Shown here: in pieces, positions 38,485-61,977 of the stretch
How positions within the stretch are numbered: position 1 is the stretch's first letter
How the letters are laid out: each line of letters begins with the position of its first letter
Assembly (NCBI GenBank): GCA_022616555.1
Contig: JAKEEG010000086.1
Location: forward strand, 1-62,336
Source of the DNA: Ignavibacteriota bacterium
Lineage (GTDB): Bacteria > Bacteroidota > Ignavibacteria > UBA10030
DNA: 62,336 bases
Direction of reading: 5' to 3'
Made by a program: the position numbers and the translations under genes
The notes under the pieces: model-generated
What the model saw: the letters and a program-made list of their open reading frames with translations, nothing else
Database searches by the model: none
Told to the model about the DNA's origin: nothing

Positions 38485-38623
38485 AAAAAACTTCTCTAAA
38501 TAAGACGCTTGCACAAGAAAAAATAACCTATCCGGTTTGTTTTCCTGCCCCATTTTACCATATATTATGGATTGAAATTACGCAATCTCGAAACACATAG
38601 GCATCGGAGACACTAGTTCATCA

Positions 38624-53469: not shown

Positions 53470-53543
53470 GCGCCTGTAGCTCAATTGGATAGAGCATCAG
53501 CCTACGGAGCTGAGGGTTAGGGGTTCGACTCCCTTCAGGCGCA
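53470..53543 (+). tRNA. tRNA-Arg (ACG)
   Basis: Acceptor GCGCCTG pairs with CAGGCGC, the anticodon stem is TCAGC/GCTGA with loop CTACGGA (anticodon ACG), and the T loop is TTCGACT. Discriminator A, no encoded CCA. Confidence 0.96.
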
Positions 53544-53545
53544 CA

Positions 53546-53833: not shown

Positions 53834-53842
53834 CAAATCAGC

Positions 53843-53890
53843 GCACCCGTAGCTCAATTGGATAGAGCATCTGCCTTCGGAGCAGAGGGA
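53843..53890 (+). pseudogene. Truncated tRNA-Arg (TCG anticodon)
   Basis: The 5' two thirds of a tRNA are present: GCACCCG, D arm GCTCAATTGGATAGAGC, and anticodon stem TCTGC/GCAGA with loop CTTCGGA. The T arm and 3' acceptor strand are missing, and unrelated AT-rich sequence follows. Its anticodon stem differs from the intact gene at 54012, so it is a separate paralogue cut short, not a direct repeat of it. Confidence 0.85.
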
Positions 53891-54011: not shown

Positions 54012-54085
54012 GCGCCCGTAGCTCAACTGGATAGAGCAATAGCCTTCGGAGCTATCGGTTGGGGGTTCGACTCCCTCCGGGCGCA
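54012..54085 (+). tRNA. tRNA-Arg (TCG)
   Basis: Acceptor GCGCCCG pairs with CGGGCGC, the anticodon stem is ATAGC/GCTAT with loop CTTCGGA (anticodon TCG), and the T loop is TTCGACT. Its 3' end faces the phage-like block, a usual arrangement for an integration site. Confidence 0.95.
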
Positions 54086-54094
54086 CTTTACCTT

Positions 54095-55124: not shown

Positions 55125-55916
55125 TCAAAATGGCCAGAGGTCGTTGAGTGACGCTCGAACACCCACTCCTACATATAGCTCACCCGGCCGGACAGCAATG
55201 CTGGCACCAAACTGTTTGTAGTAGACCTCGCCGATGAATCGCGGGAAGGTGAATTGAAAGGACTGGAGATTGCCAATCTGCACATGGCCTGCGAGTGTCA
55301 CATCATCCATCCAGGACTTGTTGTGCTGTTCAAATCGATCATCGTACTTGGCATTGATGGCAGTGACCGTGATATCCTTTTCGTTCGTTTCAACGTAGGC
55401 CCTGAGAAACCCCTGCTCATCCCGTACCATGGTCACTTCTATCTCAATCGGCTTTCTCAGTCCTATTTCCGCGGTGTGGGATTTCTTGCCTGTTTCAATA
55501 ACTCCCGATCGGAGCTTTGTAGTATCTATCTCAATGGTTATCTCTAGCTTGTAACCAAAGAGATTCGTGCTGTCTTCGACCTCGATTTTCAGTTCCTTGC
55601 CACTGAATGTTGCTTGAGCCGTGCCGGCGCCGACCTGCTTTTTCAGCTCAAGGATGGTATTCGCCTGCGTGATGATCATCTCATCCCGCTTTTTCATCTC
55701 TGAATTCTGTTTGCCCGACAGATTCTCATAGTAAGCCGCTTGGGCGGCTAGAACGCCATACTCTTTATATATAACCTCCAGCGTGTCGTTAAGCGCTTTC
55801 TCGTTATTCTTTACCCGGACTTCGGCTTGTTCCAGAGAATTGCAGGTCGACAACCACTGACTGGTTGAGACGATGCACACAAGTGCGAGGACGATGCTGA
55901 CGATGTTGGATTTCAT
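55125..55916 (-). CDS. Membrane-anchored coiled-coil protein, possible spanin-like
   Basis: The 263-residue protein has an N-terminal membrane segment (about 5-22), a long helix (about 28-95, with EVRVKNNEKALNDTLEVIYKE and MKKRDEMIITQANTILELKKQ) and a C-terminal beta-rich part (ITIEIDTTKLR through PGELYVGVGVRA). The N-terminal anchor plus coiled coil next to the endolysin recalls an inner-membrane spanin, but the large beta domain is unusual for that class. No family named. Confidence 0.5.
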   Translation of the reverse strand: MKSNIVSIVLALVCIVSTSQWLSTCNSLEQAEVRVKNNEKALNDTLEVIYKEYGVLAAQAAYYENLSGKQNSEMKKRDEMIITQANTILELKKQVGAGTAQATFSGKELKIEVEDSTNLFGYKLEITIEIDTTKLRSGVIETGKKSHTAEIGLRKPIEIEVTMVRDEQGFLRAYVETNEKDITVTAINAKYDDRFEQHNKSWMDDVTLAGHVQIGNLQSFQFTFPRFIGEVYYKQFGASIAVRPGELYVGVGVRASLNDLWPF

Positions 55917-55923
55917 TTTAGTA

Positions 55924-56268
55924 TCATTGATTATTCTTAACTGGCGGTATTATGCTGATATCGAAATAACCTCCACCGCCCGCATCGATCGTGAATGCAA
56001 TCCTTCCATGCGGTTTATGTTCCATTGAATCATATGGCTTCCCATCATCATAGTAAGCCCCTATCTTCTTGCTCAACGAAGTGAGTAGATCCAATGGATC
56101 CCTTGCTTCTGAGGTCCATGCTATGGCAACTAAATCGAAATCCCTCTGTAGACTCCCATGGATTGCAAGTGCATAACCGTGCTCCATTGCAATGTCCCTG
56201 AGAATCGGATAGTAGCTAGCGTAGAGGGATGGAAGCCACTTATTTTCTATTCTCACCTTTTGAGACAT
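55924..56268 (-). CDS. Conserved-type phage protein (HGSLQRDFDLVA motif)
   Basis: The 114-residue product contains AMEHGYALAIHGSLQRDFDLVAIAWT, which in outline resembles a short nucleotidyltransferase-like or phage hypothetical family. The start at ATG 56268 is preferred because it begins just past the amidase frame; an upstream ATG at 56325 lies deep inside the amidase gene. Role unknown; it sits in the lysis block. Confidence 0.55.
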   Translation of the reverse strand: MSQKVRIENKWLPSLYASYYPILRDIAMEHGYALAIHGSLQRDFDLVAIAWTSEARDPLDLLTSLSKKIGAYYDDGKPYDSMEHKPHGRIAFTIDAGGGGYFDISIIPPVKNNQ

Positions 56269-56270
56269 TG

Positions 56271-56966
56271 CTATACCAACGGCGAACGCGGAGGTTCTCC
56301 CAATCGCATTTCTAACGTCTCCCATGGAAAAGCTGGGTGCGGGTCGGTTTTATCAGACCTGACATTGCAATGCCCCAGCACTCCAGGAAAATCGAGATGG
56401 AGACTGTTCATCACAAAACGATCGGGGCCAGGGACTACTAGTCTTGGGATGTTAAATCGATTGCATAAGTATCCTACAAGCCAGAAGCATGCCTCGAGCT
56501 GTATGTCCTCGTACGCGTCGAAATACTTGTAACCCCGCCACTCGGCCGGCAGCTCAACGCTCTTATCATGCTGCTGCCGTGCACCGTCGAAAGCATACAA
56601 CTTCCCATCCTCTTTCTTCGTAAGGGCGCCCTCTGAGCATAACTCAATACCGATGCTCTGTTGATTTAATCGGGCGTTTGCCGATATCTTCAACCCAAGG
56701 TGATGACACCAGAAACGAGGGTCAAATACTTCGTAGATCGTTCCATTGCGCTCAATGAGGTAGGCAGTTCCTACTTTTAACACGCCACCGGATTGCGTTC
56801 TGTCCATCTTCCACCAATTGAATGTTGACTTGGCGGACCCGCCGACTGTATGATGAATATAGATCTGCTTTTTCGGAAATTCCGTTTGATATATTTCCTC
56901 TGGCGGCAGGCGGAACGATGTGGTGTCAAGTCGAAACATTTGTGAAGTATCGAGATCCATTCTCAT
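56271..56966 (-). CDS. N-acetylmuramoyl-L-alanine amidase (endolysin)
   Basis: The 231-residue protein has an Amidase_2/PGRP-type domain. The N-terminal IYIHHTVGG gives the first zinc His (38 or 39), SIGIELCSEG is the central strand, and the C-terminal GHCNVRSDKTDPHPAFPW supplies the other zinc-site residues and the ligand loop. There is no signal peptide, so release through a holin is expected. It lies 6 bases from a holin-like gene. Confidence 0.88.
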   Translation of the reverse strand: MRMDLDTSQMFRLDTTSFRLPPEEIYQTEFPKKQIYIHHTVGGSAKSTFNWWKMDRTQSGGVLKVGTAYLIERNGTIYEVFDPRFWCHHLGLKISANARLNQQSIGIELCSEGALTKKEDGKLYAFDGARQQHDKSVELPAEWRGYKYFDAYEDIQLEACFWLVGYLCNRFNIPRLVVPGPDRFVMNSLHLDFPGVLGHCNVRSDKTDPHPAFPWETLEMRLGEPPRSPLV

Positions 56967-56972
56967 TATCCC

Positions 56973-57296
56973 TTATTGATTTGGCTGTTGAGGTTCTTCA
57001 GGGTTTGGCTTGGGCTTCGGATGGCCGTTGCCATTTTTCCCGAATTTCAATTCAATGACCTTTTGAATAACTTTCGGCAATAGCAGACAGAGGATGATCA
57101 AGAACACACTCTCCGGCACATCAGCTACCGTTTTGGTATCAACTGAAACATACACGAATACGAACGTGAAGGCTGGCATGAAGAGCAACATGCCCAGTGT
57201 AACGTTAAAGCGCATGGAGGATACCGGGCTATCGTCGCTCAAGAGATCCCTCCAGGTGATTTTCTTCTTCGTCTTATCTTTCGTATCAAGGTCCAT
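56973..57296 (-). CDS. Holin-like membrane protein
   Basis: The 107-residue protein has a charged N-terminus, two membrane segments (about 32-50 and 63-77) and a Pro/Lys/Gln-rich tail (HPKPKPNPEEPQQPNQ). Two helices with a charged tail, upstream of the endolysin, fit a holin. Call by layout and position only. Confidence 0.6.
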   Translation of the reverse strand: MDLDTKDKTKKKITWRDLLSDDSPVSSMRFNVTLGMLLFMPAFTFVFVYVSVDTKTVADVPESVFLIILCLLLPKVIQKVIELKFGKNGNGHPKPKPNPEEPQQPNQ

Positions 57297-57305
57297 TGAC
57301 TCTCC

Positions 57306-57668
57306 TTAGTTAAAAGGTGCTTTGAGGATCCGGTGAAACATGAAAATGAACGACATGCCGATCACAACCGGCACAACTACTATCCATAGCCATGACTGTA
57401 TCCCGGACGCTGCGATGAAGTATGCACCGACTCCAACCGCTATCCACATGAGATTCTTGCAGATGTGCCAGAAGTCCCAAACGAGCACCAGAAAACGCCA
57501 CCGTGCATTCCCGCCAGTTCCTAGAAACCAATCACGTAGCCCATTCCTATCGAAGAATGCGAACATCGGACTCTTCTTGCCCTGAAACTTCTGACTGTCC
57601 ATACAGGCTCTCAAAAAACTGGCAAGTGAGAAACACAGCACTGCACACAGCACGTAAATCAGACTCAT
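57306..57668 (-). CDS. Membrane protein, possible second holin/antiholin
   Basis: The 120-residue protein has about three membrane helices (1-18, 55-80 and 86-112). It is 9 bases from the first holin-like gene and overlaps the next one by 4 bases. Paired small membrane proteins are common in lysis cassettes, but no motif proves the role. Confidence 0.55.
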   Translation of the reverse strand: MSLIYVLCAVLCFSLASFLRACMDSQKFQGKKSPMFAFFDRNGLRDWFLGTGGNARWRFLVLVWDFWHICKNLMWIAVGVGAYFIAASGIQSWLWIVVVPVVIGMSFIFMFHRILKAPFN

Positions 57669-58099
57669 GTTTTGCCCCCTCCATTCGCTTTGAACACTTC
57701 GTGCTCCAGGTGCTTTACTTTCAGTGCGATCTGTTTAGTCTCCGAATCAATCTCATAGTTGCATTCCCACATTTCCCCAAAGGTTTTATTGATCTCATCT
57801 CTCATTTTCTGCAAGGTTTCCAGAATTTCGATAGCTCGATTGGCTTCCGCGAGTTTTAGATCCTTGCCAATGCCTTCTTTAAGATTATTGAGGTCTTTCT
57901 CATACTCTCTCTTGAGGGTTTTGAGTGTTTCGTCAAACTCCGTTTTTGTAATAACATTAACTCCCTCTAGCTTCTCTAGACGCTCGCCGTGTGCCTTGAG
58001 AGTATATTTTGAGTAAAAGTAGAATCCAACAAGGAGTATTATTGCGGGAGCGACAAATTCTATTACATTAACTATGAAGCTCCACGTTTGCATGTCCAT
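57665..58099 (-). CDS. Membrane-anchored coiled-coil protein (144 aa)
   Basis: One membrane helix (about 10-30) is followed by a long charged helix (KLEGVNVITKTEFDETLKTL and EYEKDLNNLKEGIGKDLKLA). Its 5' end overlaps the response regulator gene by 32 bases, so the two are translated together; an ATG two codons later is also possible. It could connect the receiver protein to the membrane. Confidence 0.55.
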   Translation of the reverse strand: MDMQTWSFIVNVIEFVAPAIILLVGFYFYSKYTLKAHGERLEKLEGVNVITKTEFDETLKTLKREYEKDLNNLKEGIGKDLKLAEANRAIEILETLQKMRDEINKTFGEMWECNYEIDSETKQIALKVKHLEHEVFKANGGGKT

Positions 58100-58559
58100 T
58101 GACCACCGTGTTAAGAGTTTGGATAATATTGTCTGCGCTGGTGATTATATTGTCTACGCGTTCTTTTGCTCCGCTTCTTCGACGCGTGCGCTCTGCTCTC
58201 TTCACGGCCAACTTCATGGACTCGAGCAATCCTTCGATATTCAACTGTGTTTTTAAGATATAGTCGCTTGCTCCATGTCGTGATGCCTCCTGCATCAGTT
58301 CAAAATCATCATTGCCGGTTATGATGATCACTGGGATCTCCTTGTTCGCTTCCTTCACTCGCATCAGGGCATCCACGCCAGTGCCGGCATCGGGCAACCC
58401 AAGGTCTAACAAGACGATGTCGTGTGCGTGTGCATTCTCCTTCAACTGGCAAATCCCTTCAGTCAGCGTCCCGCTCGTCTTCAGCTGTGCCGCACCACGC
58501 AGTATATGCTCCATCATCATCCGGCAGCTTGGATCGTCCTCTATTAATAGAGCATTCAC
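58068..58559 (-). CDS. Response-regulator receiver protein inside the phage block
   Basis: The 163-residue protein has a complete receiver domain: Asp8/Asp9 (EDD), phosphoacceptor Asp52 (LLDLGLP), Thr81 (IITG) and Lys103 (YILKTQ). The remaining 45 residues form a basic then helical tail with no recognisable DNA-binding domain. It lies between a hypothetical phage gene and a membrane coiled-coil gene. A phosphorylation input to phage lysis or to a host pathway is possible; it could also be cargo. Confidence 0.85.
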   Translation of the reverse strand: MNALLIEDDPSCRMMMEHILRGAAQLKTSGTLTEGICQLKENAHAHDIVLLDLGLPDAGTGVDALMRVKEANKEIPVIIITGNDDFELMQEASRHGASDYILKTQLNIEGLLESMKLAVKRAERTRRRSGAKERVDNIITSADNIIQTLNTVVNGHANVELHS

Positions 58560-58562
58560 AGG

Positions 58563-58955
58563 CTATTTCCCTTTCGGTTTGGTGACCGGTTTCCCCACCG
58601 TGCCGCCGTTCCCTTTCTCCTCCGCCGCCTTCCCCACAAACTTATCGTACAACGCCAGCCACCGTTCGTCGGTCGGGATGGCTTTGTTTGCATTCGCCTG
58701 TCTCAGATTGTTCTCAATGATCTGCAGCTCAAAGGGCGTGAAGCGGAACGGCGCCACCGCCTTTTCATTGCAGCTCTTATTCTCTCCCACTTTCAATCCG
58801 TAGATTTTCCGTTGCTCCGGCGTGAGCTTCGCCATCCGCTTCTTCAACGCCACAATCGCGCGCCCGACGTCCCGTTCCGCCTTCGCCGGCAGCACACCCT
58901 TATCTCGTATGGCCATAAACTCCCACAACGTGAGGGGCTTGATGTAGTTTTTCAT
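58563..58955 (-). CDS. Hypothetical phage protein (130 aa)
   Basis: A charged helical protein (AERDVGRAIVALKKRMAKLT and FTPFELQIIENNLRQANANKA) with a Gly/Lys/Pro-rich C-terminal tail. No motif recognised. It follows the tail genes and directly precedes the receiver gene by 3 bases. Confidence 0.55.
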   Translation of the reverse strand: MKNYIKPLTLWEFMAIRDKGVLPAKAERDVGRAIVALKKRMAKLTPEQRKIYGLKVGENKSCNEKAVAPFRFTPFELQIIENNLRQANANKAIPTDERWLALYDKFVGKAAEEKGNGGTVGKPVTKPKGK

Positions 58956-59015: not shown

Positions 59016-59420
59016 ATGAAATTCTCACCTTTAATACTGCTCCTCCTGTTGGCCTGCACTGATATCAGCCCTAACGAATCGACAATCAACTTGTCGACAA
59101 AAACAGGTGGGTGGTACGAAACTCCCGTCAATGGTTATGCTACATCGCGTTGGCTTGACTTTGTATCTGTCCTCACTGATAATTCAACTGTGCCGGATAG
59201 TGTCCGATATACAATCATAAACGACACGCTTATGCTTGTAACGCCTGATTCTATCATGGTGGTTAACCATAGTGACCGTGATACTGTCTATCTATCTGAC
59301 ACGTTCGACGAAGTTTCTTTCACACATTTTTATAGACGGTTTTATTTTTACGACGGTTATACTGACCGATTCGGCATAACTCAACAACTTGATTTAAGCG
59401 TCTATCTGTACTATCCCTAA
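59016..59420 (+). CDS. Lipoprotein cargo gene in the prophage
   Basis: The 134-residue product has a lipoprotein signal ending LLLLACT (Cys14) and a Thr/Asp/Tyr-rich mature part (GGWYETPVNGY, FYFYDGYTDRFGITQ). It is the only plus-strand gene in the phage block and has its own promoter, as expected for a moron, a gene expressed from the prophage that changes the host surface. Such genes often exclude other phages or aid virulence; nothing here shows which. Confidence 0.65.
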   Translation: MKFSPLILLLLLACTDISPNESTINLSTKTGGWYETPVNGYATSRWLDFVSVLTDNSTVPDSVRYTIINDTLMLVTPDSIMVVNHSDRDTVYLSDTFDEVSFTHFYRRFYFYDGYTDRFGITQQLDLSVYLYYP

Positions 59421-59429
59421 AAAAATTCG

Positions 59430-60314
59430 TTACTTTGCAACCCAGGCTCCTGCTTCTCTCACATAGAATGTCGTACCACTACCACCTCCTGTTCTCAAAT
59501 AAATCGAACCATTCGGCTCAGAAGAGCTAGGTGCTGCTGAACCTGAAGTCACAGTAGCTGTGGTTCCGCTTACGCTTAAACTTCCAGAAATATCTACAAG
59601 TAAAGTATCGAGTGATATTTCGGCTCCAGATTCTAATACGATGTTGGATAGCGAAGAGGCGTCAATTAACAAGGTTGAGGGCAACCCTAAACTGAACTGA
59701 TCAAGCCCAATCGTTGCCATAACATTCCCGTTGCCCTGTGCAAAGGAAAGCGAATTGTCACCTCCGAACTTTGTAGACTGTACTAATACTATCCCATCAG
59801 CAGTGATTTCAACACGATCACCGCTACTTAATGTTTTCAAACTTCCGATTGCATAAACATTTGTCCCCGCGATATCCCCCGCCTTCGTCAGCGCCCAGCC
59901 GGTCGTTCCTGGGTCCGTGATGTTGAAGCTCGCGTCCACCGTCCCGTCCCAGTTCCCGCTCTTTAAGATCCCCGTGTCCGCTGTGATCCCGTCCAGCTCT
60001 ATCGTGAGCTGGGAATGAACGCCCTCGCGCGACACTCTAAGTATAATCTCTTCGTCCACGTTCACGATGAAGCGCTCGAACGTCCCGACGATATCCTCTC
60101 CGCTGCCCGTCCGAAACCGTCCGTCCTCGCCTACATACCATTGCACAACATCTTCGTTATATCCCCCCATCAGCGCAATGGTGTCATTCTCGCCAGCTTT
60201 CAGCTCATGCCTGGCATACCGCACGCCCGTGAAGTTCAAGCCCGGCGCGCCCTCGCCCAGCCGGATCTCGCCACCGTCATCGAGTATAATCAGATCGTGT
60301 TGGGAACGTGACAT
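59430..60314 (-). CDS. Phage tail-fibre-like structural protein
   Basis: The 294-residue product has an N-terminal part with LGEGAPGLNFTGVRYARHELKAG and long beta-prone, Gly/Ser/Thr-rich stretches (GSLSVSGTTATVTSGSAAPS), ending GSIYLRTGGGSGTTFYVREAGAWV, a pattern common at the tips of phage fibres. It lies 2 bases after the next structural gene. Protein class by composition and position. Confidence 0.65.
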   Translation of the reverse strand: MSRSQHDLIILDDGGEIRLGEGAPGLNFTGVRYARHELKAGENDTIALMGGYNEDVVQWYVGEDGRFRTGSGEDIVGTFERFIVNVDEEIILRVSREGVHSQLTIELDGITADTGILKSGNWDGTVDASFNITDPGTTGWALTKAGDIAGTNVYAIGSLKTLSSGDRVEITADGIVLVQSTKFGGDNSLSFAQGNGNVMATIGLDQFSLGLPSTLLIDASSLSNIVLESGAEISLDTLLVDISGSLSVSGTTATVTSGSAAPSSSEPNGSIYLRTGGGSGTTFYVREAGAWVAK

Positions 60315-60316
60315 TA

Positions 60317-61249
60317 TTATACCCCACCTTGAACAATGACAACAAGCCCGGTCATGTCCGCTACACTCGAGCCGGTTGGAACAGCCAGGCTTACTTCCAC
60401 AACATACAATCGGTCGTTCGTCAAAGCGCTGATATCAATTGTGGTCACGCTGTCTTCCGTCGTCCCGCTATAGCTGGTATTGTTCCCCGTCGCAGTGGCG
60501 TTTCCACCTCCCCCGCCGCCTACGAGCTGCGTGATTTCCGTCTTTACGCCCCACGTCGCCGCACCTGTTCCTACCTTTGCACGCGCAACGGTTATGAGAT
60601 TCTTATCGATTGCACGTTTGCGGAAGATCGCCCTTCGCTTCTTTTTATACGCCATCGCACTTTCCGACCAAGTGACCATCGCAGCGACTTCGCTACCAGC
60701 GGCGGCAGCTGCTTCCTTCTCATCGGAAATCAAAATATAAGACTGTCCATTCTTGAGATCCGTATCGAGCTTCGCTATCCCCAGCCCGTCGTCCTTCACT
60801 TGCAGCTTACTCGAGCCGTCCAGATTGATTGTCGTGTCATCCGTCGCGGCGAGCGCAATCTTCCCCGCTATCACGCCGCCATCCTTAATTCCCAGCTCGC
60901 CCCCGACTTTCTGCTCGAGCGTGGTGCCGTCAACAACATCCACGTTCAGCTTCGCCTTTGTGATCCCATCGTCCTTCACGCGGAACACCTTCGTCCCAGT
61001 TGCCGCGCTCGCTTCGAGTGTCGAGCCATCGACTGCCCCTGCTTGTATGGCATCGCCCGGGATGACATCGTCCAGTGGAACCCCATTGACGCCCTCGAAG
61101 AAAGCCACGAGCGTGTTCCGCAGGCGTATAATAAAATTGTTAGAGCCATCGCCGGTGTTATCTGCAAAATTTTGATGCCCTCTTGGAACATCATCACCAT
61201 CAGGCCATACTCCTGCATTTATCCAGTCACCAGAACCTTGTCGTGCCAT
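60317..61249 (-). CDS. Phage tail structural protein with repeated beta motifs
   Basis: The 310-residue product contains repeated segments around VKDDGI and VDGTTLEQKV (for example FRVKDDGITKAKLN and LQVKDDGLGIAKLD), typical of tail fibre or baseplate wedge repeats, then a basic patch KKKRRAIFRKR and a Gly-rich linker. It is probably part of a receptor-binding fibre. Confidence 0.65.
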   Translation of the reverse strand: MARQGSGDWINAGVWPDGDDVPRGHQNFADNTGDGSNNFIIRLRNTLVAFFEGVNGVPLDDVIPGDAIQAGAVDGSTLEASAATGTKVFRVKDDGITKAKLNVDVVDGTTLEQKVGGELGIKDGGVIAGKIALAATDDTTINLDGSSKLQVKDDGLGIAKLDTDLKNGQSYILISDEKEAAAAAGSEVAAMVTWSESAMAYKKKRRAIFRKRAIDKNLITVARAKVGTGAATWGVKTEITQLVGGGGGGNATATGNNTSYSGTTEDSVTTIDISALTNDRLYVVEVSLAVPTGSSVADMTGLVVIVQGGV

Positions 61250-61284: not shown

Positions 61285-61977
61285 TTACATCACATCGACC
61301 GAATTCGAACCACCAGGAAACCTGACGGTGTCCTTCGACTTGAAGGCAAACACCGGGCCTTTATAACCTACGCTCTTGCCGTACAAAGCCAGGAGAATCT
61401 CCTGCCCTTCCTGGTAATGGACATTATATTGAAAGCCCGGCGCATCTCTCCGTGGTATCAAAATTAATCTATCCGTCTCATGGAGATTCAAGCCCGGACT
61501 GATGTCCGCCAACGTCTCGCCTGCGATATACTGAGAGTAATCGAGTTCGCATCGATAGCCCCAACCCTGAAACCTCGACGCACTCCTGTTCCTGTATAAT
61601 TCGTGTATGAGTTGCAGCACTTGAAAATATTCTCTCAGCCCATCCTTTTGCGTACGCGGCAGGTCGATCACCCACCCATCGATGTAGGCAAACTGCGAAT
61701 TCGTCGGCGTTCCCAATGACCATACATCGACAGTGATCTTCTTCGCTGTGTTGTCGATGGCTGTGATTTTCCCATAGGATTCCTTGCCTACTCCGCTTAC
61801 CACGTTCCACGAGCGAAGGCGCTGGCCGGCTTTGAACGCGCTGAGATCCGGCGCTCCACCGAATGTCACCGAATCGCTTGTGAACGTCGTCGATGAGCTG
61901 CTGAAGAGCGCGGTCTGGTGCACCACCAGCAACCTCGGCGTTCCTACGCCGTTTATTATTTTTGTTGATTGTATCAT
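61285..61977 (-). CDS. Phage tail or baseplate protein (230 aa)
   Basis: A beta-rich product with GAPDLSAFKAGQRLRSWNVVSGVGKESYGKI split by turns, an aromatic helix (LREYFQVLQLIHELYRNR) and strands to PGGSNSVDVM at the end. It follows the partial gene at the window edge by one base. No family named; position between tail genes supports a structural role. Confidence 0.55.
   Translation of the reverse strand: MIQSTKIINGVGTPRLLVVHQTALFSSSSTTFTSDSVTFGGAPDLSAFKAGQRLRSWNVVSGVGKESYGKITAIDNTAKKITVDVWSLGTPTNSQFAYIDGWVIDLPRTQKDGLREYFQVLQLIHELYRNRSASRFQGWGYRCELDYSQYIAGETLADISPGLNLHETDRLILIPRRDAPGFQYNVHYQEGQEILLALYGKSVGYKGPVFAFKSKDTVRFPGGSNSVDVM

What the first reader, a model, noticed from the sequence alone, without database searches (positions are those of the whole stretch)
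57665..58559. Receiver-domain protein within the phage lysis block
A receiver with all phosphorylation residues (Asp8/9, Asp52, Thr81, Lys103) and no DNA-binding domain lies in the same strand and spacing as the holin and endolysin genes, and overlaps a membrane coiled-coil gene by 32 bases. Phages rarely encode receiver proteins. A phosphorylated receiver acting with a membrane partner could let the host's two-component state affect lysis timing or phage choice.
Basis: partly seen in the sequence, partly recalled or inferred. Interest (0 to 1): 0.6.

Follow-up and report, generated by a model that had tools for sequence, protein, structure and literature searches.

The report
Receiver–membrane coiled-coil pair in phage lysis cassettes
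A prophage in this genome carries a phosphorylation-switch protein (a two-component "receiver") paired with a membrane coiled-coil protein in the middle of its cell-lysis genes, and the same pairing recurs in more than twenty unrelated phages, including laboratory-grown Alteromonas phages, so these viruses probably couple bacterial signalling to the act of bursting the cell.

Summary
Window 58068-58559 (-) encodes a 163-aa receiver with all phosphorylation residues and no output domain. It overlaps a membrane coiled-coil gene by 32 nt, in an operon with a holin-like gene and an Amidase_2 endolysin, at the end of a prophage cut by the contig end. It is not a recent host capture: the best own-genome receiver is 33% identical.

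Receiver-motif scans of viral contigs, blind to neighbours, show a recurrent module. In 19 of 30 non-redundant phage loci with a receiver lacking a DNA-binding domain, a small membrane coiled-coil gene is adjacent; in 3 more the two are fused. Background genes score 3/166, host or DNA-binding receivers 0/24. The phosphorylation residues are nearly invariant among receivers under 45% identical. The coiled coil lies on the predicted cytoplasmic side in 22/25 partners. Several loci are explicit lysis cassettes (endolysin, holin, Rz). Large phages add their own histidine kinase. Cultured Alteromonas phages V22, A5, PB15, XX1924, R8W and H4/4 carry it; papers on three of them call the receiver an auxiliary metabolic gene.

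Most likely function: phosphorylation of the receiver controls lysis through the membrane coiled coil. Association shown; mechanism inferred (about 0.55). I found no earlier description of the module.

The parts
58068..58559 (-). Standalone receiver (REC), 163 aa: (beta-alpha)5 domain plus alpha5 extended as one helix (residues 108-160)
   Evidence: PF00072 61.6 bits; AF2 pLDDT 94.9; residues E7 D8 D9 D52 T81 K103
57665..58099 (-). Membrane coiled-coil partner, 144 aa: TM 8-26, then helical coiled-coil body predicted cytoplasmic; overlaps REC by 32 nt
   Evidence: Hydropathy, heptad score and K/R count; weak PHROG hits to Rz-like spanin 0.005 and holin 0.036; all-helical but low-confidence model
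58563..58955 (-). 130-aa protein of unknown function, first gene of the operon, ends 3 nt before REC
   Evidence: no family above cut-off
57306..57668 (-). 120-aa protein with 3 predicted TM segments
56973..57296 (-). 107-aa protein with 2 predicted TM segments, holin-like by size and place only
   Evidence: no family match
56271..56966 (-). Endolysin, N-acetylmuramoyl-L-alanine amidase (Amidase_2)
   Evidence: PF01510 67.2 bits; PHROG amidase/endolysin
55924..56325 (-). Phage protein of family phrog_35913 (unknown function)
   Evidence: E 1e-19
55125..55916 (-). 263-aa protein, N-terminal TM then coiled coil; spanin-like by layout only
61285..61977 (-). Tail-region gene shared with sister prophages of the same bacterial class
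59430..61249 (-). Two tail-fibre-like genes (59430-60314, 60317-61249) upstream of the operon
   Evidence: assignment from sequence character and place; no family match

Best explanation
The receiver and the membrane coiled-coil protein form one signalling pair within the phage lysis cassette. The coiled-coil protein sits in the inner membrane with its coiled coil in the cytoplasm. The receiver is phosphorylated on Asp52 by a kinase: the host's in small phages such as this prophage, the phage's own PAS histidine kinase in large ones. Phosphorylation changes how its alpha4-beta5-alpha5 face and long C-terminal helix engage the partner's coiled coil. That in turn advances or delays membrane permeabilisation by the holin and endolysin, tuning lysis to host physiology or an external signal. 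Shown by sequence: both proteins, intact phosphorylation sites, operon overlap, recurrence, fusions, place beside lysis genes. Inferred: phosphorylation, binding, direction of the effect, effect on lysis.
For: (1) Scans with receiver motifs only plus a profile search: 19 of 30 non-redundant non-DNA-binding phage receiver loci have an adjacent small TM plus coiled-coil gene, against 3/166 background genes (Fisher p 6e-16). 0/13 host RRs, 0/11 DNA-binding RRs in viral contigs, 0/6 Rcp-type RRs from the same phage triads. (2) Three receivers are fused to a C-terminal TM segment (G534, G555, G559). (3) D8, D52, T/S81 and K103 nearly invariant across 36 receivers in 34 clusters at 45% identity. (4) Coiled coil on the K/R-rich, cytoplasmic side in 22/25 partners (sign test 2e-5). 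(5) Lysis context: G540 TM/CC-REC-endolysin(phrog_465 8e-43)-small TM protein-Rz; G539/G530 REC-endolysin M15; G541 SLT lysozyme-REC-CC/TM (70, 73); G549 REC-CC/TM-CC/TM-endolysin (phrog_465 9e-34; 79, 82); G550 REC-CC/TM-holin. (6) Cultured phages: R8W and H4/4 class II holin-TM/CC-REC (137-139); A5 TM/CC-REC-Rz-like-2TM-endolysin; V22; PB15 CC/TM-REC-carboxypeptidase; XX1924. (7) HK-RR-REC-CC/TM order in large or partial contigs. (8) The window REC groups with phage RECs, nearest the fusion G534, and scores best against phage RECs.
Against: No experiment shows phosphotransfer, binding or a lysis effect. Membrane partners are not one sequence family: TM at either end, weak and mixed PHROG hits. 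In several large phages no lysis gene was recognised near the pair. Sister prophages lack the receiver. 8 of 30 loci show no qualifying partner by the strict rule, though 3 of these look like threshold or gene-calling misses. The coiled-coil score is home-made, with thresholds set after seeing some loci. The tree support for the phage receiver group is modest (SH-aLRT 85).
Confidence: 0.55

Rival explanations
1. Phosphate sink or decoy: the receiver drains phosphoryl groups from host kinases, or mimics a host response regulator, to reprogramme the infected cell; it sits in the late operon as an auxiliary or moron gene and the neighbouring membrane protein is separate.
For: Authors of the V22, A5 and R8W genome papers annotate the gene as an auxiliary metabolic or signalling gene. 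Phosphorylation residues are intact. The receiver is an optional module.
Against: Does not explain the adjacency and fusion to membrane coiled coils or the lysis placement. R8W gp48, called DNA-binding PhoB, is 153 aa and receiver-only by alignment, so it has no room for a DNA-binding domain. A late-expressed gene is poorly timed for early takeover (inference).
Confidence: 0.2
2. Membrane-tethered superinfection or envelope-stress device: receiver and coiled coil act on host sensors, superinfection exclusion or lysis inhibition, not on holin triggering.
For: G559 has a REC-TM fusion beside a 3-TM protein and a membrane GAF/PAS sensor; G558 has a PAS protein next to its REC. Large phages carry the pair with their own kinase and no recognised lysis gene nearby.
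Against: Direct adjacency to endolysin, holin or Rz in several unrelated phages.
Confidence: 0.15
3. The membrane coiled-coil gene is simply an Rz-type inner-membrane spanin, and the receiver is an unrelated neighbour.
For: Weak Rz-like PHROG hits: window 0.005, G545 1e-4, G550 0.003. In V22 and A5 a clear Rz-like gene overlaps the receiver.
Against: V22, A5 and G540 have a separate Rz-like gene in addition to a membrane coiled-coil gene. Most partners are tail-anchored, with the coiled coil N-terminal and cytoplasmic, the opposite of Rz. REC-TM fusions make no sense for a spanin.
Confidence: 0.07
4. Neutral hitchhiker: a decaying receiver gene moved around with tail-fibre and lysis modules.
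For: Module exchange between phages is documented for V22/A5/P24 (PMC10579305).
Against: Phosphorylation residues kept across receivers under 45% identical; partner rule and fusions; intact ORF with overlap coupling.
Confidence: 0.03

Closest known systems
Single-domain response regulators (CheY, Spo0F and stand-alone receivers)
   Same: Receiver fold, phosphorylation residues, no output domain
   Different: Phage-encoded, long alpha5 extension, genetically bound to a membrane coiled coil in a lysis operon
CheY-like / PhoB 'auxiliary metabolic genes' of Alteromonas phages V22 gp30, A5 gp11 and R8W gp48 (PMC7289586, PMC10579305, PMC8228385)
   Same: Receiver next to a TM coiled-coil gene and lysis genes downstream of the tail fibre; same arrangement as the window
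   Different: The papers do not connect the gene to lysis or to its membrane neighbours; sequence identity to the window receiver is low
XhlA-type holin accessory proteins of PBSX-like phages (from memory; not tested experimentally here)
   Same: Small cytoplasmic coiled coil anchored by one TM segment in the lysis cassette; weak hits to the PHROG 'hemolysin' families phrog_1193 and phrog_937
   Different: No Pfam hit over cut-off; TM end varies; always considered without a receiver
Signal-responsive lysis regulators: T4 RI/RIII with T, N4 gp62/gp63 (PMC12642591)
   Same: Phage proteins that adjust holin triggering to a signal
   Different: No two-component receiver; the N4 'Receiver domain' is only a name for part of a pinholin
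cREC, divergent receivers of jumbo phages linked to NAD/ADP-ribose enzymes (PMC7824862)
   Same: Phage receiver-fold proteins
   Different: Described as never in two-component systems; here canonical sites, and histidine kinase partners in large phages

Membership tests
Response-regulator receiver domain (PF00072) | Profile match over the curated cut-off | tested here: met
   61.6 vs 30.2 bits
Response-regulator receiver domain (PF00072) | Acidic pair, phospho-Asp, Thr/Ser, Lys | tested here: met
   D8/D9, D52, T81, K103
Response-regulator receiver domain (PF00072) | (beta-alpha)5 fold | tested here: met
   AF2 pLDDT 94.9 and PDB matches
Response-regulator receiver domain (PF00072) | Accepts phosphate from a histidine kinase | not testable with these tools
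   needs phosphotransfer assay
DNA-binding response regulator (PhoB/OmpR/NarL) | C-terminal DNA-binding domain | tested here: not met
   only Response_reg found; the residue 108-160 helix follows directly
XhlA-type holin / hemolysin | Profile match of the membrane partner over cut-off | tested here: not met
   window partner has no Pfam or PHROG match of weight; others weak phrog_1193/937
XhlA-type holin / hemolysin | Cytoplasmic coiled coil with one TM anchor | tested here: met
   22/25 partners by positive-inside count, window included, though the TM end differs
Rz inner-membrane spanin | N-terminal TM, periplasmic coiled coil, overlapping Rz1 lipoprotein gene | tested here: inconclusive
   N-terminal TM yes; weak phrog_1152 hit 0.005; no Rz1-like gene noticed inside or after 57665-58099; topology not measured
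Phage lysis cassette | Endolysin and membrane genes in one same-strand cluster | tested here: met
   Amidase_2 and 2-TM/3-TM genes
Phage lysis regulator (antiholin type) | Alters lysis time through the holin | not testable with these tools
   needs lysis curves

The most novel reading that the evidence does not exclude
A widespread, previously unrecognised class of phage lysis control: a phosphorylatable receiver acting on a membrane-anchored coiled coil inside the lysis cassette. Small phages plug into host kinases, and large phages bring their own PAS histidine kinase and second response regulator, so that two-component signalling sets when the cell bursts.
Probability: 0.5. Interest if true: 0.88.

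Novelty: new variant of a known kind. Interest (0 to 1): 0.8.

Why it matters
Lysis timing sets burst size and virus-host dynamics, yet for most phages the signal that triggers the holin is unknown. A phosphoreceiver built into the cassette would be a direct molecular input from cell signalling, and possibly from light, nutrients or stress through PAS/GAF kinases, to lysis. It would reinterpret receiver genes now filed as auxiliary metabolic genes in marine phages, and it is testable at once because lytic Alteromonas phages with published genomes carry the module.

Tried and rejected
Searches with the window receiver, endolysin or tail gene alone in viral contigs found nothing. One seven-row alignment was too divergent for a scan, and one pattern had too few fixed bases. 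The genome-contig scan with the receiver gave only weak hits, 25-34%. INPHARED tblastn hits are largely bacterial contigs deposited as phage (Listeria, Salmonella, Acinetobacter MD-2021a, faecal MT83xxxx) and were not used, except for complete, annotated phages with structural genes. DNA-binding regulators in viral contigs (11 loci) were excluded from the association count and used as a control. Recent host capture rejected. A second half of the prophage was sought with a sister terminase and not found, so a phage-borne kinase in this prophage cannot be excluded. The N4 'Receiver domain' paper is a different use of the term. The partner's single-sequence structure model is of low confidence (53) and is used only for 'all helical'. 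Literature searches with ten term sets found no description of the module; the library lacks most subscription papers.

Full report
What is there. The window is one complete contig of a 99-contig, 2.99-Mb genome. Its right end holds part of a prophage beside tRNA-Arg genes, truncated by the contig end at 62336. On the minus strand, tail-fibre-like genes (61285-59430) are followed by 58563-58955 (unknown), the receiver 58068-58559, a membrane coiled-coil gene 57665-58099, a 3-TM gene 57306-57668, a 2-TM gene 56973-57296 and an Amidase_2 endolysin 56271-56966, with short overlaps or gaps. The receiver is real (PF00072, 61.6 bits) and has E7, D8, D9, D52, T81 and K103. It is modelled at pLDDT 94.9 as a receiver whose last helix runs from 108 to 160. 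The membrane gene overlaps it by 32 nt and has one TM segment (8-26), then a helical body; three K/R and one acidic residue follow the TM, so the coiled coil is predicted cytoplasmic.

Origin. The best receiver of the same genome is 33% identical and 46 bits, and no other phylum genome in the search gave a match at E<=1e-17 (296 genomes, at most 12 candidates scored per genome). Among a set of host and phage receivers, the window protein scores best against phage receivers (52 bits vs 44 for the best host one). In a 67-row tree it falls among phage receivers; the label is clustered (6 changes vs 22.4 shuffled) but the node support is modest (85) and the host rows were chosen by similarity. Distant sister prophages in the same class share the tail gene 61285-61977 and have small TM genes in the lysis region but no receiver. 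So it is an old phage receiver and an optional cassette gene.

The recurrent module. I scanned viral contigs with DNA patterns for the receiver phospho-site motif only, plus one profile hit, and read the neighbourhoods. Regulators with a DNA-binding domain (11 loci) were set aside. Of 30 remaining non-redundant loci, 19 have an adjacent same-strand gene of 40-270 aa with TM and coiled coil by fixed thresholds, and 3 have receiver and TM fused (G534, G555, G559). The background rate in the same loci is 3/166. Controls: host receivers 0/13, DNA-binding viral regulators 0/11, and the Rcp-type regulators that sit beside kinases in the same phages 0/6. Adding five further receiver loci gives 20/35, p 2.5e-15 (the added locus G567 was judged). 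The thresholds were set after seeing part of the data and the coiled-coil score is home-made; the same measure was used for the controls.

Phosphorylation and topology. D8, D52, T/S81 and K103 are nearly invariant in 36 receivers that form 34 clusters at 45% identity (the one row that departed at several sites, G562, was a framing error of mine, corrected). The coiled coil is on the K/R-rich side in 22 of 25 partners, whether the TM is N- or C-terminal, which places it where a cytoplasmic receiver can reach it.

Lysis context. G540: TM/CC, REC, endolysin phrog_465 (8e-43), a 60-aa TM gene, Rz-like. G539/G530: TM/CC, REC, M15 endolysin. G541: SLT lysozyme, REC, CC/TM. G549: REC, two CC/TM genes, phrog_465 endolysin (9e-34), small gene. 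G550: REC, CC/TM, LLH-type holin just under the Pfam cut-off. Membrane partners give only weak and mixed PHROG hits: hemolysin phrog_1193/937, holin phrog_689, Rz-like phrog_739/1152. Histidine kinases occur mainly on the large contigs, in the order HK, Rcp-type RR, REC, CC/TM (G531, G538, G564, G565, G554, and Microcoleus phage My-WqHQDG). The smaller contigs with a lysis cassette have none, though these are fragments.

Cultured phages. A fold search led to Alteromonas phage V22: tail fibre, chaperone, papain-like amidase, TM/CC, REC, Rz-like gene overlapping REC by 32 nt, 2-TM gene. Schitovirus A5: chaperone, CC gene with a hydrophobic N-terminus, REC, Rz-like (3e-8), 2-TM, annotated endolysin. 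PB15 and XX1924: a 101-aa tail-anchored coiled coil, REC, then an annotated carboxypeptidase (PB15) or a 132-aa protein (XX1924), and a TM protein. T7-like R8W and H4/4: tail fibre, class II holin, TM/CC, REC, a further membrane protein, terminase. All keep the acidic, Asp, Ser/Thr and Lys positions. [quoted passage not shown] PMC10579305) or PhoB for low phosphate (PMC8228385). The R8W protein is 153 aa and receiver-only by alignment.

Mechanism. Shown: pairing, fusion, conserved phosphorylation sites, predicted cytoplasmic coiled coil, position beside lysis genes. Inferred: phosphorylation by host or phage kinases, binding of receiver to coiled coil, and control of holin triggering. The direction (advance or delay) is open. 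Rivals are a phosphate sink or auxiliary role, a superinfection or envelope-signalling role, an Rz spanin partner, or hitchhiking; evidence for and against each is listed in its field.

Novelty. Every part belongs to a known fold class, and receivers in phages have been noted singly. The coupling of a receiver to a membrane coiled coil as a standard lysis-cassette element was not found in the literature available here. I rate it a new variant of a known kind (signal-responsive lysis regulation); if the mechanism is proven it would be a new class of lysis control.

Noticed in passing
window 59016-59420 (+): Small lipoprotein gene (LLLLLAC lipobox) on the opposite strand between tail genes and lysis operon; sister prophages carry a small opposite-strand gene with a lipoprotein-like signal at a comparable place (L030 9396-9836, L032 10487-10927). 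Candidate superinfection-exclusion moron.
   Followed up: partly
window 53834-53880: Truncated 5' part of a tRNA-Arg between two intact tRNA-Arg genes (53470-53544, 54012-54086), possibly an old attachment-site scar.
   Followed up: no
G000 contig C31: Receiver matches are mirrored at 38594/86392, 44432/80578 and 53041/71951 with identical scores: the contig looks like an inverted duplication, probably an assembly artefact.
   Followed up: no
L095 1542-4154 (IMGVR 3300013120_000738): Receiver fused to a C-terminal TM segment, followed by a 3-TM protein and a membrane GAF/PAS sensor of 596 aa in a 227-kb phage contig.
   Followed up: partly
L120 4548-6218: Phage gene row TM/coiled-coil, PAS protein, receiver, coiled-coil/TM: a sensor without a kinase domain next to the receiver.
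   Followed up: partly
L135 10436-10897 (MW043865): R8W gp48 annotated as DNA-binding PhoB has no DNA-binding domain; the low-phosphate interpretation in the paper rests on this annotation.
   Followed up: yes
INPHARED records OR84xxxx-OR85xxxx, CAKLQ*, MT83xxxx: Many 'phage' records with receivers look like bacterial chromosome contigs; counts of phage signalling genes from this collection are inflated.
   Followed up: partly
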